Part shown: one piece after another, positions 19,364 through 21,251 of the stretch
How the letters are laid out: each line of letters opens with the position of its first letter
Position numbering within the stretch: the stretch's first letter is position 1
Notes under the pieces: model-generated
What the model saw: the letters and a program-made list of their open reading frames with translations, nothing else
Told to the model about the DNA's origin: nothing
Databases searched by the model: none
Position numbers and translations under genes: made by a program
Origin: Termitomyces sp. T153
Taxonomy: Eukaryota > Basidiomycota > Agaricomycetes > Agaricales > Lyophyllaceae
NCBI GenBank assembly: GCA_018296165.2
Contig: JACKQL020000007.1
Coordinates: 806,001-870,000, forward strand
Length of the DNA stretch: 64,000 nt
Reading direction: 5' to 3'

Positions 19364-21038
19364 TCACTCCCCCTCCTCCTCCGACCCTAACCCCACTACC
19401 CTTCCCACCATGAACACTTCCAACTGTGCCACTACCACCGCCAGAACCTCAGGTTGCCTGGGAAGGGGTTCCCCCATATCTGTTGCCATCTCCCACCATG
19501 CCCCAGGGTCTGCCGTCACCCTCCGCCGATGCCCTGCCAACAGACGCCCCATCTGCATAACCCCTTGACCCAACTCCGGTGGAAGGTCCCCGGGCATCCT
19601 CGCCAACCCATCATGGATGGACTCCAGCGCTGCCGATGCTCCGTCAAGAAGGATGCGATGTTCCCTGGCCCAGTCTATGGAAATGGAATCAGTGCTTAGG
19701 AGACGGGAAGCGGGGAAACCACTCATGAAGCACTCATTGGCAAGCCATTCCTCCCGCCGCTGCACCCTCTCCGCCACCGCCCGGACTCCCCCAGTGCTGG
19801 AACCCTGCTGGGTCTCCCACACTCCTGAGCCTCCTGCCTGCTGCATTGCCACCTCTGCTGCCTCCGCCTCCGCCTGCAAATGCACTGTCCACACCTCCAA
19901 CTCCTGCAGACGAGACAATCGGTCCGCAGCAGTCCCGACAGCGACGTCCTTGTCTTTCCGTGCCAAGTCCCGTTCCCTCTGAACCCCGTCCAACTCCCAT
20001 CAAGCCCCGTCCCTCTCCTCCCGTACCCCCTGAATCTCCTCCTCACGTGTGACCAACAACCGTTCCAAGCTCTCTACCCAACGCCACAGATAGGCCTCCG
20101 CAGCTGACCACGACCTATCCACGGACTGCTCAACGGGGGCTCCAGATGTAGGGGAGTACACCGCGGAACCAGGGGGGCCCCCCATTACCTGCTTGCCCCG
20201 CGCCCGCTTACTGGGACCCGCCTCAGGTGAAGGGGACGCTCTCCGTTTCCCCTTCTCCTGTGTGGAAGGGGCCCCCTCCCTCCGCCCACCCCGCGGGGGG
20301 CCCACCTTCATGACAGGCATGCTAACCCATTCCCCTTCCCCAGCCCCGGAGCCCCTCCCCGACACCCTGCCCTTCCGCCCTTCCTCCAGCTGCGCTGCGA
20401 CCCAACCTCGATCCCACCCTTGCTCCGCCGCAACACAGACAGCCCGCCAACTCAGGGTGATGGAGCACTTCTCGTGCCGCGAACGGCATGGAAGGCACAC
20501 TGACGTGTCCTGCCGTACCCCCGATGCAGGTTCCTCAAATTCACACTGCTCCCCTCATTGGGTGCAAGACGCACACTGCAGGGGCATGTTGGTCCGGGAA
20601 ACATACAGCTAAGTAGCCACTCACCGGGGCCGCCGCCTGACACCACTCGAGGGTGGGGGGACCCCTTGCCCAACCCACCGCCTCAGCAAACTGCTCCGGC
20701 GTCACCTCCACCTGTACCACCCTTGAACCCTCTGGGACAAGCCGGACCACCCTCGGACAAATGCCAGACTTGGAGCGCGTAGAAGGGGCCACGCCTGCTG
20801 GTGGCTGCATTGCATCTGCGCCAGACAGTGGCCCTGAGGGACCAGCCACGACCGCGGACAACTCTGTGAAGGGACAATCAGTATTCTGGGGTACATGAGA
20901 CAGACCGCACTCATGACTACGGTACATCGCCTCGACCCAATGGCAATCTCGGCGACCCTCTGAATCTTCGGAAGACGATGGCTGGGATGACGGGGACAGC
21001 AACCTAGATGCTGTGGGAGAATAAGCTGAAGAAGACAT
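19364..21038 (-). CDS. antisense Zn(II)2Cys6-like gene of B2 (spliced)
   Basis: Begins at ATG 21038 (MSSSAYSPTAS), 214 bp inside the 3' LTR, and runs against gag-pol. Exon 1 (21038-20625) is exactly 138 codons. A 49-nt intron (20624-20576; donor GTGAGT, acceptor CTGCAG) follows. Splicing brings CX2CX6C-X15-CX2CX6C into frame (residues 139-175), the spacing of the fungal binuclear zinc cluster, followed by Lys/Arg/Pro-rich nuclear-type stretches (GKRRAS, KRARGK) and a long charged helical region predicted by eye as coiled coil, ending in GSEEEGE. Two CGA-to-TGA changes (codons 145 and about 330) break it; a second intron before DWAREH is possible. B1 keeps the same gene, intron and six Cys. 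A DNA-binding regulator is inferred, not shown. Confidence 0.72.
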
Positions 21039-21073
21039 TACAACAAGCTGGGGGACCCCTGGGTGCGTCCACC

Positions 21074-21086
21074 CCTTTTAATAACT
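21074..21086 (-). promoter_or_regulatory. TATA-like box of antisense gene (B2)
   Basis: On the minus strand TTATTAAAAGG lies about 40 bp before ATG 21038. In B1 a similar box (CATAAAAAAGG, about 36654-36666) lies at the same distance from its ATG at 36619. Conserved position in two diverged copies supports a dedicated antisense promoter. Confidence 0.5.
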
Positions 21087-21251
21087 TAGGAAGGAGCCCC
21101 TGACAAATGGCAGCCGCACCTTGACTTCCTTCCCCATGCTGCCGCCACTTGCTGCGGTTTGATCAATATTGATCAACTTTGATTCCCATGCCCTACCGAT
21201 CCCCAACTTGCTCCCCGCATCTCAAGGGTCTCGATGCTGAAGGGGGGGTAA

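What the first reader, a model, noticed from the sequence alone, without database searches (positions are those of the whole stretch)
19364..21251. Antisense, spliced Zn(II)2Cys6-like gene inside a gypsy retrotransposon
Seen: in family B, between pol and the 3' LTR, a minus-strand gene starts at 21038. Removing a textbook 49-nt intron (GTGAGT to CTGCAG, 20624-20576) brings CX2CX6C-X15-CX2CX6C into frame. The diverged copy B1 has the same start (36619), an intron at the same place (36209-36162, GTGAGT to CTGTAG) and all six Cys at identical spacing. Both have a TATA-like box about 40 bp upstream. Inference: the intron survives retrotransposition because the genomic RNA is made from the other strand and cannot splice it. 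The product may be a nuclear DNA-binding regulator of the element or host, loosely parallel to antisense regulators such as HBZ of HTLV-1 or antisense frames in plant Tat/Grande elements. I know of no described fungal case.
Basis: partly seen in the sequence, partly recalled or inferred. Interest (0 to 1): 0.92.

Follow-up and report, generated by a model that had tools for sequence, protein, structure and literature searches.

The report
Antisense spliced gene in fungal retrotransposon
A jumping gene that is abundant in the genome of what looks like a termite-farmed mushroom (Termitomyces) carries, on its opposite strand, a four-exon gene kept under natural selection, probably for a nuclear regulatory protein with a zinc-cluster-like motif; antisense passengers of this kind are known in plants and in another fungus, but a spliced one like this was not found described.

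Summary
The gene is real and more elaborate than first described. A Termitomyces-like 72-Mb genome holds at least 102 scored matches. Of 13 copies with pol open over 1394 codons, 12 pair with an antisense match and all 12 have its main exon open (28 of 58 other pairs); the 13th lacks the gene's 5' part. Between two families, transversions by codon position average 29:19:77, introns diverge fastest, and dN/dS is 0.22-0.29: purifying selection on the spliced antisense frame. The window copy is dead (two stops, two decayed splice donors).

The six-cysteine motif has Zn(II)2Cys6 spacing, but its halves resemble Zn_clus in reversed order and fall below Pfam's cut-off. A basic linker, long coiled coil and helical C-terminus follow. 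Best reading: a dimeric nuclear regulator of the element; function is inferred. Antisense genes at this site are known (plant Grande/Retand; fungal Boty brtn), so "no fungal case" is wrong. No expression data were available.

The parts
11403..12436 (+). 5' LTR of element B2 (TG..CA)
11398..11402 (.). target-site duplication GCACC (left); right copy at 22238-22242
15597..16832 (+). pol frame with reverse transcriptase (PF00078)
17627..18862 (+). pol frame with integrase (PF17921, PF00665) and SH3_Tf2-1 (PF24626)
20915..21038 (-). antisense gene exon 1 (124 nt in 40 of 40 family copies)
20864..20914 (-). intron 1, 51 nt; donor ATGAGT in this copy, GTGAGT in 23 of 40
20625..20863 (-). antisense gene exon 2 (239 nt in 40 of 40)
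19727..20575 (-). antisense gene exon 3; in-frame stops at codons 128 and 313 (family numbering) in this copy
20465..20575 (-). six-Cys cluster C-X2-C-X6-C-X15-C-X2-C-X6-C
20198..20254 (-). basic stretch KGKRRASPSPEAGPSKRAR (called nuclear-signal-like from recall)
19835..20122 (-). approximate place of the long helix predicted for homologue P0002 (residues 273-368; pLDDT above 90 for about 281-350)
19675..19726 (-). intron 3, 52 nt; donor ATGAGT in this copy, GTGAGT in 28 of 40
19364..19674 (-). antisense gene exon 4 with stop codon
21074..21084 (-). TATA-like TTATTAAAAGG, about 40 bp upstream of the ATG
21159..21176 (.). 18-bp perfect palindrome TTGATCAATATTGATCAA upstream of the antisense ATG; candidate operator only
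21252..22237 (+). 3' LTR of element B2 (94.9% identical to the 5' LTR over the 966 aligned positions)
35752..36619 (-). 5' part of the antisense gene of the outer element B1 (exon 1, 53-nt I1, exon 2, 48-nt I2, start of exon 3)
23648..24286 (-). 3' part of B1's antisense gene, separated by a nested element

Best explanation
SHOWN: family-B Ty3/Gypsy elements carry an antisense protein gene of four exons and three small introns (511-514 codons in the open copies seen) between pol and the 3' LTR; the frame is under purifying selection, and its main exon is open in all 12 pairs with a long open pol. INFERRED: it is transcribed from a promoter between its ATG and the 3' LTR, spliced by the host, and encodes a coiled-coil dimer that enters the nucleus through its basic linker and uses the cysteine cluster to bind DNA, most likely the element's own LTR/promoter region, tuning sense transcription or integration. 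The introns persist because the packaged genomic RNA is the complementary strand, on which they are not introns.
For: Exon 1 (124 nt) and exon 2 (239 nt) constant in 40 of 40 copies, six Cys in 40 of 40. In 11 B1-like copies exon 2 is 239 nt in 9 and 238 in 2, while I1 is 53 nt in 8 and 54 in 3, and I3 varies; where I1 is 53 nt the frames join only when it is spliced. Transversions at codon positions 1/2/3 average 29/19/77 against nine B1-like copies, p about 7e-9 or less in each of the nine; introns about 0.19 per site. dN/dS 0.22-0.29 in the 5 between-family pairs run, with 5 of the 11 B1-like copies. 70 of 70 pol/antisense pairs lie on opposite strands, 65 of them 500-549 bp apart; 12 of 12 with a 1394-codon open pol have an open main antisense exon, 28 of 58 otherwise. 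The 3 such copies fetched are open to codon 514 with all three introns GTGAGT..AG. An annotated Termitomyces J132 protein (P0002) is 514 aa, the length of the three-intron model. Zn_clus at E<=1 in 15 of 29 homologues; coiled coil with pLDDT above 90 over about 70 residues.
Against: No RNA or protein evidence for transcription, splicing or nuclear entry. Annotated models disagree on I1: of 7 that start MSSS and hold the cluster, 5 lack and 2 keep the I1 stretch. Pfam Zn_clus is below cut-off (6.8-13.7 bits against 21 in the 5 of 10 proteins with a match) and the half-motifs are in reversed order. AlphaFold gives no confident fold for the cysteine region (mean pLDDT 49 for the piece). Two more Cys nearby are near-invariant and one His is invariant in the 25-row alignment, so another zinc fold is possible. 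A 13th copy with open pol lacks the 5' part of the gene (L056). Any-stop in pol against any-stop in the antisense exon is only weakly linked (p = 0.08). Two more distant relatives (L057, L058) showed no match to this element's integrase nearby. Of the 40 copies nearest the window copy only 3 are open to the end.
Confidence: 0.55

Rival explanations
1. The gene is real and coding, but the protein is not a transcription regulator: the cysteine cluster binds RNA or protein, and the coiled-coil protein acts as nucleic-acid chaperone, nuclear-import aid or integration-tethering factor.
For: The motif does not reach Pfam's Zn_clus cut-off; extra near-invariant Cys and an invariant His; a conserved C-terminal helical region of unknown kind.
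Against: The second half (CLPCRSRHKKC in L009) aligns with the start of Zn_clus (profile 2-14); a basic linker and coiled coil are usual in zinc-cluster regulators (recalled).
Confidence: 0.3
2. The antisense transcript, not the protein, is what matters: convergent transcription makes double-stranded RNA and dampens the element.
For: Position opposite the 3' end of the sense transcript; antisense-RNA roles are discussed for such elements (PMC7264820, passages).
Against: Codon-position bias and dN/dS 0.22-0.29 show that the protein is selected; a pure RNA role would not conserve the frame across introns.
Confidence: 0.08
3. Chance open frame opposite a conserved or sense-coding stretch.
For: The region is GC-rich, so long chance frames occur.
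Against: Sense frames carry 7-9 stops in 3 of 3 copies examined, longest 229 codons; introns diverge faster than exons; exon lengths are kept while intron lengths vary.
Confidence: 0.02
4. A host gene captured recently, carried as cargo and selected for the host.
For: Introns and gene-like structure suggest a host origin at some time.
Against: At least 102 scored matches, the same place and strand in two families, and relatives at 33-46% identity in other Termitomyces strains point to long residence in the element; no intact single-copy host gene stood out in the capped lists.
Confidence: 0.05

Closest known systems
Antisense additional ORFs between pol and 3' LTR of plant Ty3/Gypsy elements (Grande gene23, RIRE2, Retand with TRP28)
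   Same: Same place and strand, present in most copies, suspected DNA-binding or nuclear proteins, own promoter in Grande (PMC7264820: passages and section 5 seen; PMC11963269: abstract and passages seen)
   Different: Different protein: no TRP28-like family among those hit by 29 homologues at E<=1. The word 'intron' occurs 0 times in the main text of either paper. Host is a basidiomycete.
brtn of Boty-like elements, Botrytis cinerea (Zhao et al. 2011)
   Same: A fungal element with an antisense gene, filed in PMC7264820 (section 5) with those between pol and 3' LTR; a similar transcript is reported in Monilinia (PMC5987419, passage)
   Different: Sequence and original paper not held, so homology, introns and motif could not be compared.
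Zn(II)2Cys6 binuclear cluster proteins (PF00172)
   Same: Six Cys with CX2CX6C-X15-CX2CX6C spacing, basic residues in one half, coiled coil behind
   Different: Half-motifs in reversed order, below the Pfam cut-off
HBZ of HTLV-1 (function only)
   Same: Antisense-encoded nuclear protein of a retroelement (passage in PMC11963269)
   Different: Unrelated protein as far as known; mentioned only as an analogy, not compared here

Membership tests
[quoted passage not shown]
   window anatomy; 70 of 70 pairs opposite
Antisense additional ORF of Ty3/Gypsy elements (aORF-3R) | kept in most copies of the family, conserved like other element proteins | tested here: met
   48 of 102 scored antisense-exon matches have no stop, against 54 of 101 for the integrase frame
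Antisense additional ORF of Ty3/Gypsy elements (aORF-3R) | transcribed from its own promoter | not testable with these tools
   only a TATA-like stretch and conserved upstream DNA
Retand TRP28 proteins | TRP28 domain | tested here: not met
   no such family among the 9 listed for 29 members at E<=1; that Pfam holds the domain is recalled, not checked
Boty brtn | sequence homology to BRTN | not testable with these tools
   paper not held; BRTN sequence not obtained
Zn(II)2Cys6 (PF00172) | six Cys with CX2CX6C-linker-CX2CX6C spacing | tested here: met
   40 of 40 family copies, some with a stop inside; strict pattern in 42 of 135 annotated proteins, many of the rest being fragments or models without this stretch
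Zn(II)2Cys6 (PF00172) | score at or above the Pfam gathering cut-off | tested here: not met
   6.8-13.7 bits against 21 in 5 of 10 proteins, none in the other 5; best E 0.0026 among 29 members, its bits not shown
Zn(II)2Cys6 (PF00172) | basic half first, then second half | tested here: not met
   best stretch is the first motif on profile 13-35 in 3 proteins, the second motif on 2-14 in 2
Zn(II)2Cys6 (PF00172) | fold with two zinc ions bound by six Cys | tested here: inconclusive
   AlphaFold2 low confidence there; zinc binding not testable
Ty3/Gypsy LTR retrotransposon (the carrier) | LTRs with TG..CA, short TSD, RT before integrase | tested here: met

The most novel reading that the evidence does not exclude
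The protein is an element-encoded regulator with a circularly permuted binuclear zinc cluster, and it behaves like a phage immunity module: the antisense genes of families B and B1 are far more diverged at silent sites and introns than the pol and LTRs of the same elements, as if anciently distinct regulator types were kept or swapped on a recently shared backbone, each type governing its own kind.
Probability: 0.1. Interest if true: 0.85.

Novelty: new variant of a known kind. Interest (0 to 1): 0.62.

Why it matters
A spliced, selected antisense gene shows how a retrotransposon can keep introns through an RNA intermediate: hide them on the other strand. With open copies in one genome, it gives a case for asking what antisense accessory genes do, which the two plant papers seen (PMC7264820, PMC11963269) call unknown. 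The cysteine motif, if it binds zinc and DNA, would be a new arrangement of a common fungal regulator motif.

Tried and rejected
Chance frame or sense-coding overlap: rejected by stops in the sense frames and by codon-position bias. Single-intron model: replaced by three introns after comparison with annotated homologues. Structure prediction of the cysteine piece: too uncertain to use, so no fold search was run. Relatives outside Termitomyces: all 96 hits, all 120 listed of 132, and 5 of 5 are Termitomyces; the search needs shared 5-residue words and searches hit the candidate cap, so a wider distribution is not excluded. PDB by sequence: no hit for the exon piece; six hits at E 0.39 or worse for the profile, taken as chance. 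Literature: ten searches ran; in their listings I saw no basidiomycete case; the library lacks most subscription journals. Palindrome as operator: in 40 of 56 loci held then, but only half kept in the two B1-like copies aligned, so left as a lead. The excess silent divergence of the antisense gene (third-position transversions 27 of 652 in pol against 57 of 411; counts, test) could be recombination, constraint on LTR and pol, or faster mutation; not resolved.

Full report
Setting. The window is G000:C7:806001-870000 of a 72.4-Mb genome in 307 contigs. All protein relatives listed are from Termitomyces strains (T112, J132, Mn162, T159_Od127, T32_za158), so the host is taken to be a Termitomyces. 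The finding lies in a complete Ty3/Gypsy element, B2: LTRs 11403-12436 and 21252-22237 (917 of 966 aligned positions identical; 46 of 49 differences are transitions), TSD GCACC on both sides, RT and integrase/SH3 frames on the plus strand. B2 sits inside an older element, B1, whose antisense gene is also split by a nested gypsy-type element at about 24419-35746.

Observation. The window copy itself is dead: a TGA inside the cysteine cluster, a second TGA, and two splice donors that read ATGAGT.

Gene model. The gene therefore has four exons (124, 239, 871 and 311 nt) and three introns (51, 49, 51 nt), 514 codons, the length of J132_02857 (P0002). Annotators disagree on intron 1: of 7 models that start MSSS and hold the cluster, 5 lack and 2 keep that stretch. 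In the 40 copies most like the window copy: exon 1 and exon 2 lengths constant in 40 of 40; donor GTGAGT in 23, 39 and 28 of 40 for introns 1, 2 and 3, with ATGAGT in 16, 0 and 10; all three introns GT..AG in 20 of 40; frame open to the end in 3 of 40. These 40 are the best 40 scored of 1247 candidates by similarity to a decayed copy, so they are not a sample of young copies. Of 13 copies whose pol frame is open over 1394 codons I fetched the antisense gene of 3; all 3 are open to the end with GTGAGT..AG at all three introns, and of one more that lacks the 5' part (L056). In 11 copies of the B1-like family, intron 1 is 53 nt in 8 and 54 in 3, intron 3 varies, exon 2 is 239 nt in 9 and 238 in 2; none of the 11 is open to the end.

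Decay. Against one open-pol copy, the 40 copies show 7249 differences: 3287 are transitions at CpG, 3284 other transitions, 678 transversions; 56 of 84 in-frame stops sit at codons that read CGA or CGG in that copy, at recurrent places. This looks like methylation-type decay after insertion and should push plain dN/dS upwards.

Selection. Against nine B1-like copies, transversions at codon positions 1, 2, 3 average 29, 19 and 77; introns carry about 0.19 per site. Nei-Gojobori dN/dS is 0.22-0.29 in the five between-family pairs run, 0.24-0.39 in four pairs within family B, and 0.50 in one pair of decayed B1-like copies. Sense frames have 7-9 stops in 3 of 3 copies. For the window pair B1/B2, pol gives 8:5:27 (RT plus integrase pieces) and the antisense pieces 22:14:57, so both are constrained, pol somewhat more.

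Link with the element. Of 102 scored antisense-exon matches 48 have no stop; of 101 integrase-frame matches 54 have none (both lists capped). 70 pairs could be matched; 70 of 70 are on opposite strands, 65 with a gap of 500-549 bp. Of the 12 pairs with a 1394-codon open pol, 12 have an open main antisense exon; of the other 58, 28. The cross-table of any pol stop against any antisense stop is only suggestive (p = 0.08). The 13th open-pol copy has no antisense match in the list; its DNA matches B2 only from the middle of the gene onwards, and its first 640 bases match nothing in the window (L056).

Protein. From N to C: a Ser/Pro-rich start, a conserved GPPTLEWC stretch, the six-Cys cluster, a basic KGKRRASPSPEAGPSKRAR stretch, a long coiled coil (pLDDT above 90 for about residues 281-350 of P0002), and a conserved helical C-terminus. 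Zn_clus is hit below cut-off; the first cysteine group matches profile 13-35 (3 proteins), the second 2-14 (2 proteins), i.e. the halves are in reversed order; 15 of 29 homologues match at E<=1. In a 25-row alignment Cys 3-6 and one His are invariant, Cys 1-2 and two flanking Cys nearly so, so a different zinc fold is possible. Structure prediction does not decide.

Spread. Relatives at 33-46% identity to P0002 occur in T159_Od127, T32_za158 and, as a third type, T112. In this genome two more distant copies (L057, L058) keep the six Cys and the intron-2 place, but no match to this element's integrase (E<=1e-3) was found in the 3.7-4.3 kb held. Nothing outside Termitomyces was found, within the limits of the search.

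A divergence island. Between B1 and B2, transversion divergence is 0.007-0.062 from the 5' LTR through gag and pol, 0.03-0.16 across 19090-21029, and 0.02-0.08 again in the upstream region and 3' LTR. In eight of eight B1-like copies compared: introns 0.15-0.24, antisense exons about 0.08, LTR 0.04-0.09, upstream region 0.04-0.06, pol end 0.02-0.045. Third-position transversions: 27 of 652 in pol against 57 of 411 in the antisense gene, p = 2e-8. The silent sites of the antisense gene thus look older than those of the backbone. Exchange of antisense modules between families would explain it; so might constraint on LTR and pol, or faster mutation.

Comparison. Antisense genes between pol and the 3' LTR are an established kind: Grande gene23, RIRE2 and Retand/TRP28 in plants, Boty brtn in Botrytis (abstracts, passages or one section seen, no paper read whole). 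What I did not find described is a multi-intron member, one with a zinc-cluster-like motif, or any in a basidiomycete (ten searches, listed under tried and rejected; the library is partial). I class it as a new variant of a known kind.

Verdict. That it is a real, selected, spliced antisense gene: about 0.97. That the protein acts as a nuclear DNA-binding regulator: about 0.5, by inference only.

Noticed in passing
window 24419-35746: A nested Ty3/Gypsy-type element in minus orientation (RNase H, integrase zinc-binding domain, SH3_Tf2-1, weak chromodomain) with repeated ends splits B1's antisense gene.
   Followed up: partly
window 19090-21029 against B1 pieces: Island of high transversion divergence confined to the antisense gene and its 3' spacer; pol, LTR and upstream region are closer.
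   Followed up: partly
window 21159-21176: Perfect 18-bp palindrome TTGATCAATATTGATCAA upstream of the antisense start, in 40 of 56 loci held at the time; only one half is kept in the two B1-like copies aligned.
   Followed up: partly
L057 and L058, about 1-2500: Downstream of the distant relatives lie proline-rich frames and no match to this element's integrase; the carrier of these copies is unknown.
   Followed up: partly
L056 1-640: A copy with an open 1394-codon pol has DNA without a match in the window in place of the 5' half of the antisense gene.
   Followed up: partly
window 40999-42087: Mdm10-like host gene (PF12519) beside the repeat nest.
   Followed up: no
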